Positions 6,975-16,388 of a stretch of 56,368 nucleotides of DNA are shown in pieces. The notes under the pieces were generated by a model. That model was not told the DNA's origin. It saw only the letters and a program-made list of their open reading frames with translations, and ran no database searches. Source of the DNA: Candidatus Endomicrobium procryptotermitis. Its GTDB lineage: Bacteria > Elusimicrobiota > Endomicrobiia > Endomicrobiales > Endomicrobiaceae. The translations under genes were made by a program, and so were the position numbers. How positions within the stretch are numbered: position 1 is the first letter of the stretch; each line of letters opens with the position of its first letter. The stretch covers positions 1 through 56,368 of the forward strand of contig JAITIP010000030.1 in the NCBI GenBank assembly GCA_031279415.1, given 5' to 3'.

Positions 6975-7169
6975 TCAATATTCTTCTGGAGAAAGCCCTG
7001 CATAAGCTTTTCTGAGCCTGTCCTGATAATCATCATCTTCGTTTTTACTTAAAACCGTAGCTATCAAAACAAAAGTGGAATAAGCAAATGCCGCAAAAAT
7101 ACAGAGTTTGCCTATATCTTTGTAAAGTCCGCTTATTCCGTCAGTAGTATTTTTTTTTCTAATCAGCAT
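6975..7169 (-). CDS. Small single-pass membrane protein, unknown function
   Basis: A 64-residue protein with a short basic N-terminus, one hydrophobic segment (about residues 21-41, containing CIFAAFAYSTFVLIATVL) and a charged C-terminal tail (EDDDYQDRLRKAYAGLSPEEY). I do not recognise the family. The ATG at 7169 overlaps the preceding gene's stop (ATGcTGA). An AGGA lies about 10 nt upstream; a GTG at 7178 in the same frame is the alternative start. The overlap suggests translational coupling to the lysine-rich protein upstream. The acidic tail would sit on one membrane face; orientation cannot be read with certainty. Confidence 0.65.
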   Translation of the reverse strand: MLIRKKNTTDGISGLYKDIGKLCIFAAFAYSTFVLIATVLSKNEDDDYQDRLRKAYAGLSPEEY

Positions 7170-7624
7170 ATTCTGCACTTCCTAGGAGCAGTTTCCATGA
7201 TAAGATTTCCGCCGGGATCCATAAGCCTTACAACTATAAAATAATCGTCCTTTGCGAAATATGTCCAGTCAAACCACCAATATCCCGCGTCATATCTGCA
7301 AGGCTGCCATTCGCCGTTATTAAACGAAATTTCAACATACCCATCAGTTGATGCACCCACTCTTATTGCATAATGATTGCCGTATATCGTCTCCATATCT
7401 ATCGGATGATCTATTACTATATATGCATTCGGGTAATTGTTAACCTCAGTTTTTATTTCTTTAGTTTCCTCTACAGATTTCATTTTCTTGGCATCAGAGG
7501 TTTTTGTCGTCTTTTTTCTTGTTTTTGTCTTTGTCTTTTTTGCAGTGGTTTTATTTTTTATTTCATTCTTTTCTTCAGAATCGGATATAGTCGTAACTTT
7601 TTTCTTTGATACCTTCATTGCCAT
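7163..7624 (-). CDS. Lysine/threonine-rich N-terminus plus small beta-rich domain, unknown function
   Basis: 153 residues. Residues 1-55 are low complexity and strongly basic (runs of K, T, E). The rest looks like a compact beta-sandwich with many aromatics (YWWFDWTYF around 113-121), ending in a Cys-rich CRIC. The C-terminal half loosely resembles carbohydrate-binding or Ig-like modules, but I cannot name a family. There is no signal peptide, so it is probably cytoplasmic; the basic tail could bind nucleic acid, which would suit its place upstream of smc. The start is well supported by GGAGG 7 nt upstream of the ATG at 7624. It is co-directional and overlapping with the small membrane protein that follows. 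Confidence 0.75.
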   Translation of the reverse strand: MAMKVSKKKVTTISDSEEKNEIKNKTTAKKTKTKTRKKTTKTSDAKKMKSVEETKEIKTEVNNYPNAYIVIDHPIDMETIYGNHYAIRVGASTDGYVEISFNNGEWQPCRYDAGYWWFDWTYFAKDDYFIVVRLMDPGGNLIMETAPRKCRIC

Positions 7625-7693: not shown

Positions 7694-8806
7694 TTAAGCA
7701 CCATATATGCTGTACTTTTTATATATTTTTCCATTCATCATTTCGGCGGTACGCCGCGTCATGACATTGTCATCAAGTACCCATGAAAGCTCACAATGTT
7801 TATACCCGTTTTTTAAAGCGTTTTTCAGCCCTTTTTCATACATTATAGCTTCAATACCTTTATGTCTGTACTCTTTTATCACTCCCATGACCATAAGTCT
7901 GAGTCTGTCGATTTTATTCTTATAATACAGATATTTGAAGATACCAAAAGGTAAAAGACTTCCATTAAGCTTTTTTAGTACCTGATTATAATCTGGCAAA
8001 GAAATAAGCATTCCGACAGGCACACCAGAAAGCGATGCTATTATTATCATATCAGGATCGAGAAGCGGCTTCATTTTTGAAGCCAACACTGCAAACTCCT
8101 CATCGCTCCAAGGAACAAAACCCCAATTTTTTTCCCAAGCTCTATTATATATGGATATCGCGGATTTTAAATCTTCGTCAAAAGTATCTTTGCCTAGCGA
8201 TTTCACTTTTAGAGTCGGGAGCTTTTTTTTTGCCATTTGTACTACTTTTTCAAGACGCCCAAGTCTTGAATCCCCAGTAACATCCATATCATAGGCATAA
8301 AGTTCTTTTATTTTTTTGAGTCCTGATTTTTCCGCAATACTGAGATAGTACTGCGGCGTATAACTCATCATAAGAGCAGGAGGCAAATCAAAACCTTCCG
8401 ACAGAAAACCGAGTTCGTCATTTGTAGATGGATTCATCGGCCCCATCATTTTATTTATGCCTTTTTCGTTAAGCCAGTTTTTTACGGCATCAAAAAGAGC
8501 CTTTGCTGTAACATCATCATCAATGCATTCAAAAAAACCGAAAAAACCGCAGTTGTCATCTTGAAAATTTATATAATTGTAATCAATTATAGCCGCTATC
8601 CTACCTGTTATCCTTCCGTTTTCATCATAAGCAAGAAAAAGCTGTTTTTTTGCATGAAGCCAAAAAGGATTTTTGTCATCCGACAAAATTTCTATCGTAT
8701 CGGATATAAGAGGTGCTACCCAAGGGCTTTTTTTTGAATAAATCTTCCATGGAAAACGGATGAATTGCCTGAACTGTCTCGAGGTTTCGACTTTAGAAAT
8801 TCTCAT
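7694..8806 (-). CDS. GNAT-fold N-acyltransferase, candidate bacterial ceramide synthase
   Basis: A 370-residue protein of the large GNAT-like type. The C-terminal third carries the acyl-CoA-binding-like segment (VMGVIKEYRHKGIEAIMYEKGLK), and the N-terminal half includes KSPWVAPL and MMGPMNPSTNDELGFL, typical of the long GNAT-related family that in Caulobacter includes the ceramide synthase bCerS. In that pathway the enzyme N-acylates the sphingoid base. The start at 8806 has AGGA about 7 nt upstream. The gene follows the serine palmitoyltransferase-like gene by 26 nt on the same strand, which is the main reason for the proposed role. Without that context it would be called only a GNAT protein. 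Confidence 0.7.
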   Translation of the reverse strand: MRISKVETSRQFRQFIRFPWKIYSKKSPWVAPLISDTIEILSDDKNPFWLHAKKQLFLAYDENGRITGRIAAIIDYNYINFQDDNCGFFGFFECIDDDVTAKALFDAVKNWLNEKGINKMMGPMNPSTNDELGFLSEGFDLPPALMMSYTPQYYLSIAEKSGLKKIKELYAYDMDVTGDSRLGRLEKVVQMAKKKLPTLKVKSLGKDTFDEDLKSAISIYNRAWEKNWGFVPWSDEEFAVLASKMKPLLDPDMIIIASLSGVPVGMLISLPDYNQVLKKLNGSLLPFGIFKYLYYKNKIDRLRLMVMGVIKEYRHKGIEAIMYEKGLKNALKNGYKHCELSWVLDDNVMTRRTAEMMNGKIYKKYSIYGA

Positions 8807-8832
8807 GTTCTTATCCTGCCGTGTATATATGT

Positions 8833-10020
8833 TTAAGAGATTATGCCCAGAGCTTTGCCGACTTTTGAAAACTTGTCAAGGATAAAGTTCAGATGTTCAT
8901 CCGTATGGGTTGCCATGTAGCTTGTTCTTATTATCGCCTGCCCTTCGGGAACAGCCGGAGTGACTACTGGAGAAGCAAACACGCCTTCGTCAAAAAGCAT
9001 CTTCCACATTTTAAAAGCCGTCAAATCACTGCCTACAGTTAAAGGTACTATCGGCGACTGAGAATTGTTTGTTTTATAGCCCATAGACTGAAAAGCCGTT
9101 TTCATTTTTTTGGAGTTTTCCATAAGTTTCATTCTTCTTTCGGGTTCCTGAATTATTAAATCTAAAGCCGTATCTATCGCACCTACACACGCAGGAGGAA
9201 GGCTTGCGGTAAAAATCATTGATCTTGATGCATGTTTTATATAATCTATCACTTCGTTTCTGCTTGCGATAAAACCGCCTATCGATGCCAAAGATTTTGA
9301 AGCAGTTGCCATCAAAACGTCAACATCTTCTTCTATATTAAAGTGAGAGCCAGTTCCTCTGCCATTTTCGCCTATTACGCCAAGTGAGTGTGCTTCGTCA
9401 ACATAAACTTTTGCTCCATATTTTTTTGCAAGTTTTGAAATTTCAGGCAAGTTTGCTATGTCGCCTTCCATACTGAATATGCCGTCAACTACTATAAGCA
9501 TTCCCCTTCCCTGATTTTTTGCAAGCTGTCTTTCAAGATCGGACATATCATTATGCCTAAATCTTGCCATTTCTCCGAAAGAAAGGCGGCAGCCGTCAAT
9601 AATGGAAGCATGGTCAAGTTTATCGGTTATTATGACTTCGCCTTTTCCCACAAGGCTGGAAATAGCACCTAAATTCGAATGATGCCCCGTAGTAAAAAGA
9701 ACGGCTGACTCTTTATTGATAAATTTTGCAAATTTCTTTTCGACTTTCTCATGCAGATCGCTTGTTCCGTTAAGAAATCTTGAACCCGTTCCCGAAGTTC
9801 CATATTTCTTTACAGCTTCTATTGAAGATTCTATTACTTTAGGATGGCTTGCAAGTCCAAGATAATTATTTGAACAGACAACGATTTTTTTCTTACCGTC
9901 AACTACAGTTTCCGGACCCTGCTGCGATTCTACTGTATGAAAATATGGATAAAATCCGGATTTTTTAAGTTCGTTGGCATCATGGAAGTTGAGACATTTC
10001 TCAAAAATATCAGAACTCAT
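8833..10020 (-). CDS. spt: Serine palmitoyltransferase-like alpha-oxoamine synthase
   Basis: A PLP-dependent alpha-oxoamine synthase of 395 residues. Features favouring serine palmitoyltransferase over BioF or Kbl are the N-terminal GFYPYF (22-27) before a QGPE segment, DEAHSLGVIG (208-217) followed by GTGSHF, and SKSLASIGGF (241-250) with the predicted PLP lysine K242. His137 in DHAS should stack on the PLP ring. The family reaction condenses serine with a long-chain acyl thioester to 3-keto-sphinganine in the cytoplasm. The start at 10020 has GGGAG 9 nt upstream. Flanking genes (an SDR upstream, a GNAT acyltransferase downstream) supply the two next steps of ceramide synthesis. Kbl (glycine C-acetyltransferase) is the main alternative; no threonine dehydrogenase is adjacent. 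Confidence 0.82.
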   Translation of the reverse strand: MSSDIFEKCLNFHDANELKKSGFYPYFHTVESQQGPETVVDGKKKIVVCSNNYLGLASHPKVIESSIEAVKKYGTSGTGSRFLNGTSDLHEKVEKKFAKFINKESAVLFTTGHHSNLGAISSLVGKGEVIITDKLDHASIIDGCRLSFGEMARFRHNDMSDLERQLAKNQGRGMLIVVDGIFSMEGDIANLPEISKLAKKYGAKVYVDEAHSLGVIGENGRGTGSHFNIEEDVDVLMATASKSLASIGGFIASRNEVIDYIKHASRSMIFTASLPPACVGAIDTALDLIIQEPERRMKLMENSKKMKTAFQSMGYKTNNSQSPIVPLTVGSDLTAFKMWKMLFDEGVFASPVVTPAVPEGQAIIRTSYMATHTDEHLNFILDKFSKVGKALGIIS

Positions 10021-10044
10021 TTGAACGATCTCCCTTTTTGCATA

Positions 10045-11025
10045 CTAAAAAAATTTATTATTTAAATACCAATTATATGTTATTTTAGAAGCAATTTCAA
10101 GTTTGGTAAACTCAATACCTAAATCAACCCGGGCGCAAGTATTATCGGCAATCCAGTATTCTTGGAGCATTTCGTTTATTTTTTGCTTATTAAGCACCGC
10201 AGGCTTTCCTGTGATATATGAGAACGACTGGGCTGCCATGCCTGCAAACTTAAAAACAAAATCCGGAATCGGTATAGGCATAGCTGTTCTGCCTACGGCT
10301 TTGGAAATTACCTGTCCCACCTGTGACCACGTGTAAGGCGTTTCCTCAGCAAGATAATATGTCCTATTATCGCTTTTTTTGTTATCAAGACATGTACAAA
10401 CGCATCGTGCTACATCTTTTACATATACCAGTTGCAAAACCCTTTTTTCAACTGTAAAAGGTCTTAAATGTTTGTTTACAAGATTGAAAAATATAAAAAT
10501 ATCTTTATCCCTCGGACCATAAACCGACGCTGGTCTTAATATTGTATAGGGAATTTTCCCCAAAAAGAGTTCCTGTATTTCTTCTTCGGCTGCAATCTTA
10601 CTCAAACCGTAATCCGAAACAGGTGTTTCTTCTTCATTAAGTTTTTTTGGATTTGCGGAACTGCCAGGACCCATAGCTGCCTGAGATGAAATAAAAATGA
10701 ACTTTTTTAATGATGGATTCATTTTTAAAACGGCATTACATAGGTTTTTGGTATACTCGACATTGCCTTTAAAATAATCTTCTCTGTTAAAAGCTCTTAC
10801 GCGGCCGGCACAATGCACTATTATGTCAATATTTTTTACGCATATTTCTAAAAATTTTATGTCGTTTAAATCTCCGTATTTAAAAAAAACCGGCAGATGA
10901 CTTATCCACGACAAGTCCGATGTTTTTCTTACGACACAGGTAACCTGGTGCTTTTTAGACAATAATGCTTCAACTATATGACTACCTATAAAACCGTTAG
11001 ACCCAGTAACAAGCACCTTTAGCAT
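10045..11025 (-). CDS. Extended SDR (NAD-dependent epimerase/dehydratase family), candidate ceramide reductase
   Basis: 326 residues with a Rossmann glycine motif TGSNGFIGS at 7-15 and the SDR catalytic Tyr139-x3-Lys143 (YGLSK). The C-terminal ~100 residues form a variable substrate domain. By homology type it could be a sugar epimerase or a keto-reductase. Beside the spt-like and GNAT genes it matches the CerR position in Caulobacter-type clusters, reducing the 3-keto group. The ATG at 11025 is chosen because GGGAG lies 6 nt upstream; an in-frame ATG at 11046 lies 1 nt past the hypE stop and lacks a ribosome site. There is no promoter-sized gap after hypE, so co-transcription with the hyp genes is likely. 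Confidence 0.75.
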   Translation of the reverse strand: MLKVLVTGSNGFIGSHIVEALLSKKHQVTCVVRKTSDLSWISHLPVFFKYGDLNDIKFLEICVKNIDIIVHCAGRVRAFNREDYFKGNVEYTKNLCNAVLKMNPSLKKFIFISSQAAMGPGSSANPKKLNEEETPVSDYGLSKIAAEEEIQELFLGKIPYTILRPASVYGPRDKDIFIFFNLVNKHLRPFTVEKRVLQLVYVKDVARCVCTCLDNKKSDNRTYYLAEETPYTWSQVGQVISKAVGRTAMPIPIPDFVFKFAGMAAQSFSYITGKPAVLNKQKINEMLQEYWIADNTCARVDLGIEFTKLEIASKITYNWYLNNKFF

Positions 11026-11047
11026 AATATTCTCCCTCTGCTGCATA

Positions 11048-12049
11048 TCAGCAGATTCTCGGTAATTGTTCAGTATCGATATTAAGAATTTTTCTCAGAT
11101 TTCCCGAAACGGTTTTTACCCATACCCCTTTAGGATCTTTCACGACTTTCCCTATAACCGCAGCTTTTTTCCCTAAAGAATTTTTTTTGTATGCTGTAAT
11201 AACTTTTCCTGTATCGGACTCTTTCTGAAAAGAAATCATCTTTCCTTCATTCGGCATATATAAAGGATCTAAACCAAGTATTCTGCAAAAAGCCGCCACA
11301 TTATTTGCCATAGGAATTTTGTCATATTCTATTATTATGCCGACATTGGAACTTTCGGCAATTTCATTAAGAACCGCCGCAGCTCCACCTCGGGTCGGAT
11401 CTCTCATAACGCGAACGTCAGGGCATACTTTTAAAATATCCTGCACCAAAAAATTTAAACAAGCGCAATCACTTTTTATTGAAGATTTAAAACCAAAATC
11501 ATTTCTTGAAAGCATGACGGCTGCTCCGTGCTCTGCTATATTTCCGCTCACTATTATAGTATCTCCATATTTTGCGTTTGAGCCAGAAAGATTGATTTTT
11601 TTTCCGATAATTCCTATCGCACTCGTATTGATAAATATTGCGTCAACCTCGCCTTTTTTCATGACTTTCGTATCCCCGGTAACTATATTGACGCCTGCCA
11701 GCTTTGCCTGTTTTGCCATTGAAAACGTTATTTTTTGCAAATCTTTTACAGGAAAACCTTCTTCTATAACCGCCGCAGCAGATAAAGCCAAAGGTCGTGC
11801 ACCCATCATCGAAATATCGTTAACGCTTCCGCAAACAGCAAGTTTTCCTATGTCCCCGCCTTTAAAAAAAATCGGATTTATGACAAATGAATCCGTAGCA
11901 AAAGCAAGTTTCATATTTTTTATTTTTAAAACAGCTCCGTCGTCAAGAGGATTCAGTTCTTTATTTGAAAACACTTTTTTAAAAACTTTGTTTATAAGTT
12001 CTTTGGATGCGTTGCCTCCGGCACCATGTGCCAAGGTTATTTTATCCAT
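11048..12049 (-). CDS. hypE: Hydrogenase maturation protein HypE
   Basis: Dehydrates the carbamoyl group on its C-terminal cysteine to a thiocyanate, the source of the cyanide ligands of the [NiFe]-hydrogenase active site. The protein is 333 residues, starts MDKITLAHGAGG and ends PRIC, whose last residue is the carbamoylated Cys. The PurM-like ATP-binding fold is seen in DDGAVL (near 40) and RDPTRGG (near 215). The start at 12049 overlaps the hypD stop by 8 nt; longer in-frame starts would run deep into hypD and are not needed. It works with HypF upstream in the same operon. Confidence 0.95.
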   Translation of the reverse strand: MDKITLAHGAGGNASKELINKVFKKVFSNKELNPLDDGAVLKIKNMKLAFATDSFVINPIFFKGGDIGKLAVCGSVNDISMMGARPLALSAAAVIEEGFPVKDLQKITFSMAKQAKLAGVNIVTGDTKVMKKGEVDAIFINTSAIGIIGKKINLSGSNAKYGDTIIVSGNIAEHGAAVMLSRNDFGFKSSIKSDCACLNFLVQDILKVCPDVRVMRDPTRGGAAAVLNEIAESSNVGIIIEYDKIPMANNVAAFCRILGLDPLYMPNEGKMISFQKESDTGKVITAYKKNSLGKKAAVIGKVVKDPKGVWVKTVSGNLRKILNIDTEQLPRIC

Positions 12050-13109
12050 CGTATTTTCCGTATTTGTAATATGCGCTGCAAACACCTTCGGAAGAAACCA
12101 TGCACGGACCCAAAGGTTTTAACGGAGTACATTTTTTTCCGAAAAAGCCGCAGCCATAAGGATTTATTTTTCCTCTCATTATATCTCCACATCTGCAGGG
12201 CTCTTTTTTATTCATGTCTTTTTCATCTTTAACTTGAAATTTGATGTCTGCATCAAAAGTGGCATATTTTTTGTTCAACCTAAATCCGCTTTTTTTTATA
12301 CAACCGAGCCCGCGCCATATGTCATCTTTCAAATCAAACACTTCCGATATCAAATTTTTAGCTTTAATGTTTCCTTCTTCGTTTACAACCGCCTTATATA
12401 TATTTTTAAATCCGCATGAGCGCGATTTGATATTTTTAATCAAAAAATCTATGGCTTCTACTATTTCTTTTTTTGAAAAACCCGTTACTGCACAGGATAT
12501 TTTATATTTTTCTGCCACATATCTAAAAGCGCCGGCACCGGCTATGGCAGCAACATTTCCGGGGAGAATAAACCCGTTTATATCAAAATCATCATCAGAA
12601 ACAAGCATGTTTAAAGCCGGAAAAATACTTTTAAACATCGAAAAAACAGAAATATTTTTGATTTTTTTTTCATAAGCTTCTTTTATGACTGCCGCCGCGG
12701 CAGGTAATGTAGTCTCAAAACCAGCTCCGATAAAGACAACTTCTTTTTCCGGATTTGCCTCGGCGATTTTCAAAGGGTCATATACGCAATAAATTACCCT
12801 GACATCAGCCCCTTTCAAAATTTCCAATTCAAGAGATGAGGTAAACGCCGGAACTCTAAGCATATCGCCGAATGTCGCAATTACTATATTTTTATTTTTT
12901 AACAAGTGCAGGCATTGTTCCAAGCGATTTGAAGGAGTTACACAAACAGGACAACCAGGACCTGAAATAAGTTCCGTTCCAACAAAATAATCGCGCAGTC
13001 CGTATCTGGCTATCGTCATAGTATGCGTACCGCATACTTCCATTATTTTTATCCCTTTAGAAAGACGATAGGATTGTCTTGTCGTCTTTTTTGATTCTTC
13101 AGCCGGCAC
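12042..13109 (-). CDS. hypD: Hydrogenase maturation protein HypD
   Basis: Scaffold with a [4Fe-4S] cluster on which the Fe(CN)2CO unit is assembled together with HypC. Hallmarks are MEVCGTHTMTIARYGLR (starting at 23), SGPGCPVCVTP (about 49-59) and the Cys-rich C-terminus with CRCGDIMRGKINPYGC and GPCMVSSEGVC. Length is 355 residues, as usual. The start is a GTG at 13109, supported by AAGGAG 7 nt upstream, and overlaps the end of the LOG gene by 11 nt. This tight packing argues for one transcript from hypC to hypE. Confidence 0.95.
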   Translation of the reverse strand: MPAEESKKTTRQSYRLSKGIKIMEVCGTHTMTIARYGLRDYFVGTELISGPGCPVCVTPSNRLEQCLHLLKNKNIVIATFGDMLRVPAFTSSLELEILKGADVRVIYCVYDPLKIAEANPEKEVVFIGAGFETTLPAAAAVIKEAYEKKIKNISVFSMFKSIFPALNMLVSDDDFDINGFILPGNVAAIAGAGAFRYVAEKYKISCAVTGFSKKEIVEAIDFLIKNIKSRSCGFKNIYKAVVNEEGNIKAKNLISEVFDLKDDIWRGLGCIKKSGFRLNKKYATFDADIKFQVKDEKDMNKKEPCRCGDIMRGKINPYGCGFFGKKCTPLKPLGPCMVSSEGVCSAYYKYGKYDG

Positions 13110-15176: not shown

Positions 15177-16388
15177 CTACTCGCCAAAAACAATTTTAGT
15201 TTTCATGATTTCTTCGCGATATTTTATTTTCATACGCAAGTATTCCATTGGTCTATCGCCTTTTGTCCTATTGCAATGAGGGCATAATAACTGATAGTTT
15301 TCATAGTAATCCCCGCCTCCCTTAACTTTAGGAATAATATGGTCTATTTCAAATTGGAAAATATCCATTTTAACGCCGCAAGCTCTGCACATTCCTTGTT
15401 GGTCTGCATAAAGCCGTTGTTTTACAGGCTGATTTATAGGTTCTTCTTTAATGTCTGTACGTTTTGGAGGTTTATCCGCTGCAACAAAATCACTAAACAA
15501 CCCTGCATCGTCGCTTAAGCGGTCAATCAACACATTAACTGACTGTTTTTCAATGTCAATACCTATCCATTTTCTACCTAATTGCTGCGCAGCAACGCAT
15601 GAGGTCGCACAGCCGCAAAATGGGTCAAACACTATGTCGCCTTCATTTGATGAGGCTTTTATAATGCGGCGCAAAAGAGCAAGTGGCTTTTGTGTGGGAT
15701 AACCCGTTTTTTCTTTACTAAAACTTTTAATTGCGATAGAATCTAATACATCCCCGTTATTACAATTCCAAGTATCCTCTATTGGAATACCGTTCCCTGT
15801 AGGTTTTTTACCATCTCTGCGGACATAGTTTTGAGGATATGTTATGTATTCTTTATTAAATACAAAATTATCACTTTTTGTATAATATAAAATTATATCA
15901 TGATTTCTAATAAATTTGCCTGCTTGTGTTTTATACCCTGAAACCCACCCAATTCGCCACACAATTTCATTTCTAAAATTACCTTTCCCAAAGATTTCAT
16001 CTAACAGCGCTTTTAAATAATGGCTTGCAGTCGGGTCGCAATGCAGATACATACTGCCTGTATCTTTCAAAATGCGATACATTTCTATAATTCGTTGTGC
16101 CATATAAGTTAAATATGCTTTCATCGCTTTGCTGTGCATCACACCAACAGATGAAATAAATGTTGTCAATACAGGATATTTGTCCGCCATAGTTTCTAAA
16201 TAAGATTCGTCAATATCTTCCCAACTCCACATATCTTTAAAACTTGCACCTGCGGCTTTTGTCCCAATGGGAGCGCAATACATACGTTTAGAATTAAATG
16301 GCGGATCTAAATAAATCAAATCCACAGATTGACTGTTCATCCCGTTCATAATATATAGATTGTCATTTGTGTATAATGTGTTTTTCAT
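15177..16388 (-). CDS. Beta-class DNA amino-methyltransferase fused to HNH nuclease domain
   Basis: 403 residues. Catalytic DPPF at 28-31 precedes SAM motif DPFCGC at 255-260, the circularly permuted beta order of N4-cytosine/N6-adenine methyltransferases. Target recognition probably lies at ~120-230. The C-terminus is an HNH domain: Cys334/Cys337 and Cys369/Cys372 should hold a structural zinc, with Asp349-His350, Asn364 and Asn373 forming the HNH core. The chain could both methylate and cleave DNA, or the HNH could be a nickase or inactive. The start overlaps hypF by 26 nt and has no Shine-Dalgarno. The N-terminus from ATG 16388 matches the family (LYTNDNLYIM). Its place between hypF and the HEAT-hypC genes suggests insertion into an existing operon. 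Confidence 0.88.
   Translation of the reverse strand: MKNTLYTNDNLYIMNGMNSQSVDLIYLDPPFNSKRMYCAPIGTKAAGASFKDMWSWEDIDESYLETMADKYPVLTTFISSVGVMHSKAMKAYLTYMAQRIIEMYRILKDTGSMYLHCDPTASHYLKALLDEIFGKGNFRNEIVWRIGWVSGYKTQAGKFIRNHDIILYYTKSDNFVFNKEYITYPQNYVRRDGKKPTGNGIPIEDTWNCNNGDVLDSIAIKSFSKEKTGYPTQKPLALLRRIIKASSNEGDIVFDPFCGCATSCVAAQQLGRKWIGIDIEKQSVNVLIDRLSDDAGLFSDFVAADKPPKRTDIKEEPINQPVKQRLYADQQGMCRACGVKMDIFQFEIDHIIPKVKGGGDYYENYQLLCPHCNRTKGDRPMEYLRMKIKYREEIMKTKIVFGE

What the first reader, a model, noticed from the sequence alone, without database searches (positions are those of the whole stretch)
7694..11025. Three adjacent genes that look like a ceramide (sphingolipid) operon
In order of transcription: an extended SDR, a serine palmitoyltransferase-like enzyme with GFYPYF, GTGSHF and SKSLASIGGF motifs, and a long GNAT-type acyltransferase. 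This matches the ketoreductase, Spt and ceramide synthase steps known from the Caulobacter pathway. Sequence shows the motifs and the tight spacing (25 and 26 nt); the lipid product is inferred. No acyl carrier protein or phosphate/sugar head-group enzyme is next to them. Sphingolipid beside a complete-looking LPS gene set would be notable for such a bacterium.
Basis: partly seen in the sequence, partly recalled or inferred. Interest (0 to 1): 0.85.

Follow-up and report, generated by a model that had tools for sequence, protein, structure and literature searches.

The report
Ceramide-synthesis operon in an Endomicrobium relative
Three neighbouring genes in this gut-type bacterium (phylum Elusimicrobiota) look like a complete kit for building ceramide, the core of sphingolipids, a membrane lipid long thought rare in bacteria, and the same kit recurs across most of the phylum, including a cultured species in which it could be tested directly.

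Summary
In detail: on the minus strand an extended SDR (start 11025), a serine-palmitoyltransferase-like PLP enzyme and a 370-aa tandem-GNAT acyltransferase lie head to tail with gaps of 24 and 26 nt. A maximum-likelihood tree puts the central enzyme with all included SPTs (Bacteroidota and proteobacterial), across a 97-100% branch from BioF/Kbl; the genome's other such enzyme falls with BioF. The GNAT is homologous over its full length (33-34%) to E. coli BL21 YghO and its Sphingomonas counterpart, the acyltransferase of known ceramide loci. The SDR is the genome's best match to the BL21 CerR-type reductase. The trio is syntenic in Endomicrobium proavitum and widespread in Elusimicrobiota (SPT in 138 of 190 good genomes sampled); the SPT-GNAT pair is also adjacent in at least eight other phyla. 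In reduced Endomicrobiellum endosymbionts the genes are mostly kept or lost together, but Em. agilis and one relative keep SDR and GNAT beside a decayed spt. No dedicated ACP or head-group gene adjoins. The LPS genes are partial and about 35 kb away. Ceramide itself is inferred. This is a new member of a known kind; I found no open paper reporting it for this phylum.

The parts
10045..11025 (-). Extended SDR, CerR-like 3-keto reductase (ketosphinganine/oxidised-ceramide reductase)
   Evidence: Epimerase Pfam; GxxGxxG and YGLSK motifs; best match in the genome to the E. coli BL21 CerR-type reductase (2e-25); order conserved. ORF extends to 11046 from an upstream ATG.
8833..10020 (-). Serine palmitoyltransferase-like alpha-oxoamine synthase (Spt)
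   Evidence: Best PDB matches are Sphingobacterium SPT 8guh/3a2b (2e-114); NCBIfam CFB SPT 504 bits (cut-off 640); SPT side of the tree; PLP-lysine motif TASKSLASIGG.
7694..8806 (-). Tandem-GNAT acyltransferase, bacterial ceramide synthase (bCerS/aca, YghO) homologue
   Evidence: 33-34% full-length to YghO and Sphingomonas bCerS; AlphaFold2 model (pLDDT 92) is a tandem GNAT.
7163..7624 (-). Conserved 153-aa neighbour between GNAT and smc, no known family; probably linked by position only
   Evidence: No Pfam/NCBIfam match; conserved place in family and order.
11048..13109 (-). hypE and hypD, immediately upstream and possibly co-transcribed; not part of the pathway
   Evidence: TIGR02124 and TIGR00075 above cut-off; linkage conserved in several relatives.

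Best explanation
The three genes encode a bacterial ceramide backbone pathway. Spt condenses L-serine with a long acyl thioester (acyl-CoA or the housekeeping acyl-ACP) to a 3-keto long-chain base; the tandem-GNAT bCerS N-acylates it; the SDR reduces the 3-keto group with NAD(P)H, giving (dihydro)ceramide for the envelope. The order of acylation and reduction is left open, as it is debated for Caulobacter. Shown here: gene anatomy, homology, tree position, synteny and joint loss. Inferred: substrates, product, envelope location. Unknown: head group and transport.
For: SPT side of a 97-100% branch from BioF/Kbl, with the genome's other such enzyme on the BioF side. PDB best hit SPT at 385 bits against 271 for E. 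coli Kbl and 251 for cysteate acyltransferase. GNAT and SDR match the acyltransferase and reductase of the E. coli BL21 locus, whose SPT was assayed in vitro and whose acyltransferase/reductase counterparts are required for dihydroceramide in Caulobacter (PMC9386255). Conserved order across the phylum and in Myxococcota, Acidobacteriota and others; SPT-GNAT also in Zixibacteria, Ignavibacteriota, Gemmatimonadota and Bacteroidota, and SPT-GNAT-reductase on Rubrobacter and Streptomyces plasmids. 28 of 28 spt-bearing Endomicrobiellum genomes have both partners; of 14 without spt, 10 have no GNAT match and 11 no SDR match, and one more (G137) holds only broken remnants of both. A PAP2_3 protein sits beside the cluster in six loci of other phyla.
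Against: No lipid data. The enzyme is 136 bits below NCBIfam's CFB SPT cut-off. Identity to characterised SPTs is only 38-50%, so serine over alanine, glycine or cysteate is not proven. No head-group enzyme next to the operon and no PAP2_3 protein above cut-off in the genome. One relative, G038, keeps spt at the locus without the neighbouring SDR and GNAT.
Confidence: 0.83

Rival explanations
1. The operon makes a sphingolipid analogue: the central enzyme uses alanine or glycine (1-deoxyceramides) or cysteate (capnine-type sulfonolipids) rather than serine, with the same acylation and reduction steps.
For: Tree and homology cannot resolve the amino acid; 1-deoxysphingolipids were found in anoxic Black Sea water with many Spt-like bacteria (PMC11334938).
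Against: Much stronger similarity to SPT (385 bits) than to the solved cysteate acyltransferase (251 bits).
Confidence: 0.09
2. The central enzyme is a glycine C-acetyltransferase (Kbl) or BioF and the neighbours are unrelated.
For: Same superfamily; NCBIfam glycine C-acetyltransferase/BioF-related models also score 331-417 bits.
Against: Opposite side of a well-supported branch, a separate BioF-like copy in the genome, phylum-wide linkage and joint loss with bCerS and CerR homologues.
Confidence: 0.03
3. A real sphingoid-base locus whose GNAT and SDR act in another step, for example N-acylation of a different amine or modification of a polar head.
For: GNAT relatives also occur without a nearby SPT, e.g. 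in Aminicenantes and Clostridia bins; two endosymbionts keep GNAT and SDR after losing spt.
Against: Full-length homology to YghO/aca and the close pairing with SPT in most loci.
Confidence: 0.05

Closest known systems
Caulobacter/E. coli BL21 (rhodobacterial) ceramide locus: spt, acpR, aasR, epi/cerR, aca/bcerS (yghO)
   Same: Homologous Spt, reductase and N-acyltransferase; yghO and the BL21 reductase find the window genes as best matches in this genome.
   Different: No acpR or aasR next to the window operon; Spt only 38% identical and in a different SPT group; the genes here are one tight operon downstream of hypE.
Bacteroidota SPT (Sphingobacterium, Bacteroides, Parabacteroides)
   Same: Closest characterised SPTs (45-50%); no dedicated ACP next to spt; shared MATHT C-terminal motif.
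   Different: In the sampled Bacteroidales spt sits by a diacylglycerol-kinase-like gene, not by bcerS/cerR; the GNAT is only 27% identical to Bacteroidales relatives.
SDR-SPT-GNAT clusters in Myxococcota, Acidobacteriota and other uncultured-lineage genomes
   Same: Same three genes, often in the same order.
   Different: Several carry a neighbouring PAP2_3 protein, a candidate head-group enzyme, absent from the Endomicrobiaceae locus.

Membership tests
Bacterial serine palmitoyltransferase | Alpha-oxoamine synthase fold with PLP lysine and conserved Asp/His cofactor residues | tested here: met
   Aminotran_1_2; VDEAH and TASKSLASIGG aligned with solved SPTs
Bacterial serine palmitoyltransferase | Groups with characterised SPTs and apart from BioF/Kbl | tested here: met
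   Careful tree of 62 rows, branches 97/96 and 100/99
NCBIfam SPT equivalogs (NF047600, NF047599, NF047603) | Score above the curated cut-off | tested here: not met
   504 bits vs 640 (CFB), 398 vs 500 (BetaP), 319 vs 670 (AlphaP); CFB SPT is its best model but it is not a member of that curated equivalog
Bacterial serine palmitoyltransferase | Condenses L-serine with a long acyl thioester | not testable with these tools
   Needs enzyme assay
Bacterial ceramide synthase (bCerS/aca/YghO) | Full-length homology to YghO and Sphingomonas bCerS, best match in the genome | tested here: met
   33-34% over about 370 residues; only match of YghO in the genome, 1.3e-60
Bacterial ceramide synthase (bCerS/aca/YghO) | N-acylation of a long-chain base | not testable with these tools
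   Predicted fold is tandem GNAT with no close solved relative
CerR ceramide reductase | Extended SDR with NAD(P) motif, best match to known CerR in the genome | tested here: met
   2e-25 against 2e-4 for the next SDR; motifs
CerR ceramide reductase | Periplasmic location as in Caulobacter | tested here: inconclusive
   No obvious signal peptide by eye, but known CerR sequences also start at the Rossmann motif; location reported in PMC11087976
Rhodobacterial sphingolipid locus | Dedicated AcpR and AasR next to spt | tested here: not met
   None among the neighbours scanned in the window
BioF or Kbl | Placement with BioF/Kbl | tested here: not met

The most novel reading that the evidence does not exclude
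Some Endomicrobiellum endosymbionts (Em. agilis TA26 and one relative) have lost spt but keep intact bCerS and CerR homologues because they salvage long-chain bases or 3-keto bases from their flagellate host and re-acylate them, a bacterial counterpart of sphingolipid salvage.
Probability: 0.2. Interest if true: 0.65.

Novelty: new member of a known kind. Interest (0 to 1): 0.45.

Why it matters
Sphingolipids were regarded as rare in bacteria; a recent survey predicts them in up to 40 phyla, mostly on genomic grounds (PMC11334938). Here a phylum with cultured members carries a compact and widely conserved ceramide operon, so the prediction can be tested in one lipid extract of Endomicrobium proavitum or Elusimicrobium minutum. 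It also gives a natural series of loss, from free-living relatives with the whole pathway to protist endosymbionts with part of it or none, for asking what bacterial sphingolipids are for, in a lineage where LPS genes are also being lost.

Tried and rejected
Kbl/BioF: rejected by tree and by a separate BioF-like copy. Hopanoid-associated epimerase HpnA for the SDR: best NCBIfam name but 119 bits against a cut-off of 368. A mixed alignment of all GNATs could not be used for the genome scan; a closer set worked. Head-group hunt: flanks of distant Elusimicrobiota loci gave only unrelated or housekeeping neighbours, and PAP2_3 had no match above cut-off in this genome. Taxonomy of the Black Sea survey's 38 phyla is in supplements that could not be read, so a prior listing of Elusimicrobiota there is not excluded. 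The BL21 region was first fetched at the wrong coordinates.

Full report
What is in the window. Three minus-strand ORFs at 10045-11046, 8833-10020 and 7694-8806 encode an extended SDR, an alpha-oxoamine synthase and a long GNAT protein. Upstream are hypE, hypD and a LOG-family gene; downstream a 153-aa protein without known family, then smc (smc by similarity of the ORF, my reading).

Whose genome. The window is contig 30 of a 2.0 Mb genome. A same-family genome (G014) is one contig of 1,588,979 bp, exactly the published length of Endomicrobium proavitum (PMC4505116). So the organism belongs to Endomicrobiaceae, phylum Elusimicrobiota.

The central enzyme. Its best solved relatives are Sphingobacterium SPT (8guh, 3a2b; 2e-114, 385 bits), ahead of E. 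coli Kbl (271 bits) and cysteate acyltransferase (251 bits). NCBIfam scores it best with the Bacteroidota SPT model, 504 bits, but under that model's cut-off of 640; the E. proavitum enzyme scores the same (503), and true Bacteroidota SPTs score 684-700. In a careful ML tree of 62 sequences the window enzyme is on the side of all included SPTs (Bacteroides, Parabacteroides, Sphingobacterium, Sphingomonas, E. coli BL21), split by 97/96-100/99 support from BioF, Kbl and the Thermus enzyme; the genome's second copy (C3) is with BioF and scores best with BioF. The E. coli BioF was left out of that tree as a very long branch; in the quick tree with it the picture was the same. PLP-lysine and cofactor motifs are intact.

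The acyltransferase. It has no close solved relative but is 33-34% identical over its whole length to E. coli BL21 YghO and to the Sphingomonas protein lying near spt, acp and a reductase. YghO finds only this protein in the genome (1.3e-60). PMC9386255 lists yghO (ECD_02850) and CC_1154 as the acyltransferase gene required for dihydroceramide biosynthesis, and shows in vitro activity of the BL21 SPT. The AlphaFold2 model (pLDDT 92) is a tandem GNAT, nearest solved folds about 10% identical.

The reductase. The BL21 reductase's best match in this genome is the window SDR (2e-25; next 2e-4). It has the Rossmann glycine motif and the YxxxK catalytic pair. Its tree with CerR-type sequences is weakly resolved and had one distant outgroup only, so the assignment rests on best match plus synteny.

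Conservation. SDR-SPT-GNAT, often with hypE upstream and the 153-aa gene and smc downstream, recurs in E. proavitum and most relatives. Of 40 relatives' loci 35 have SPT directly upstream of GNAT and 25 the full order; of 80 named loci from the genome scan 47 and 26. Named phyla with the adjacent pair outside Elusimicrobiota include Zixibacteria, Ignavibacteriota, Myxococcota, Acidobacteriota, Bacteroidota, Gemmatimonadota, Thermodesulfobacteriota and Caldisericota (names as in the record titles of bins). A phylum-wide sample gives an SPT-level match (E <= 1e-105, stricter than the best BioF/Kbl-like copies) in 209 of 295 genomes, 138 of 190 good ones.

Joint loss. Among 42 Endomicrobiellum-genus (g8) genomes, all 28 with spt have GNAT and SDR matches. 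Of 14 without spt, 10 have no GNAT match and 11 no SDR match; G137 holds remnants of both with stops; G164 has part of a GNAT; only G011 and G026 keep both full-length. There, the space between intact SDR and GNAT holds a degraded remnant whose start still reads like Spt. Several of the spt-less genomes are very incomplete and the genomes are related, so these counts are soft.

Mechanism. Serine plus acyl thioester gives a 3-keto long-chain base; N-acylation and 3-keto reduction give (dihydro)ceramide. Caulobacter work disputes the order and places CerR in the periplasm (PMC11087976); sequence here does not settle it. Lack of a dedicated ACP is not a defect: AcpR/AasR co-occur with SPT in Rhodobacteria (PMC9386255), whereas the sampled Bacteroidota spt loci have none next to spt. 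Head group is unknown; in six loci of other phyla a PAP2_3 protein flanks the cluster, a family that from my own knowledge includes inositol-phosphorylceramide synthases, but none passes the cut-off in this genome.

LPS. The window has hldE-kinase, hldD, kdsA, kdsB, lptB and an LpxL-like gene at 46-53 kb, about 35 kb from the operon, and the Endomicrobiaceae survey reports no LptD (PMC11257099). It is not a complete set and not beside the operon, but the organism does appear to combine LPS genes with a ceramide operon.

Novelty. The pathway is known and its wide genomic distribution was predicted (PMC11334938, 38 phyla). No open-licence paper held the words for Elusimicrobiota and serine palmitoyltransferase together, the co-mentions with sphingolipid or ceramide synthase that I could judge from titles and one look-up did not concern this, and the 2024 Endomicrobiaceae survey does not mention sphingolipids. 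It is a well-supported new member of a known kind, with an immediately testable prediction.

Noticed in passing
L056:7875-8589 and L057:9894-10138 (between SDR and GNAT): Decayed spt remnant between intact SDR and GNAT genes in two Endomicrobiellum endosymbionts, one of them Em. agilis TA26.
   Followed up: yes
L212:6016-12883 (G038): Locus reads hypE-SPT-h153-smc with SDR and GNAT missing; only a distant GNAT (29%) elsewhere in that genome (L063).
   Followed up: partly
window 7163-7624: 153-aa protein with a Lys/Thr-rich start and a conserved aromatic C-terminal part, kept between GNAT and smc across the order, no known family.
   Followed up: partly
L189:9142-11523; also L164, L181, L188, L190, L198: PAP2_3-type protein next to the ceramide cluster in several uncultured-lineage loci: candidate head-group enzyme.
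   Followed up: partly
window 15177-16388: 403-aa DNA-methyltransferase-like ORF that ends in an HNH-like CxxC...CxxC segment, apparently a methylase-HNH fusion (by eye).
   Followed up: no
L083:9635-10579, L084:7060-7998, L086:1332-2276: A second, divergent SDR (about 25% to the window SDR) follows GNAT in some relatives.
   Followed up: no
L042:5007-6221 (Priestia megaterium plasmid): Plasmid-borne oxoamine synthase 49% identical to the window Spt, next to methyltransferase and acyltransferase-family genes.
   Followed up: no
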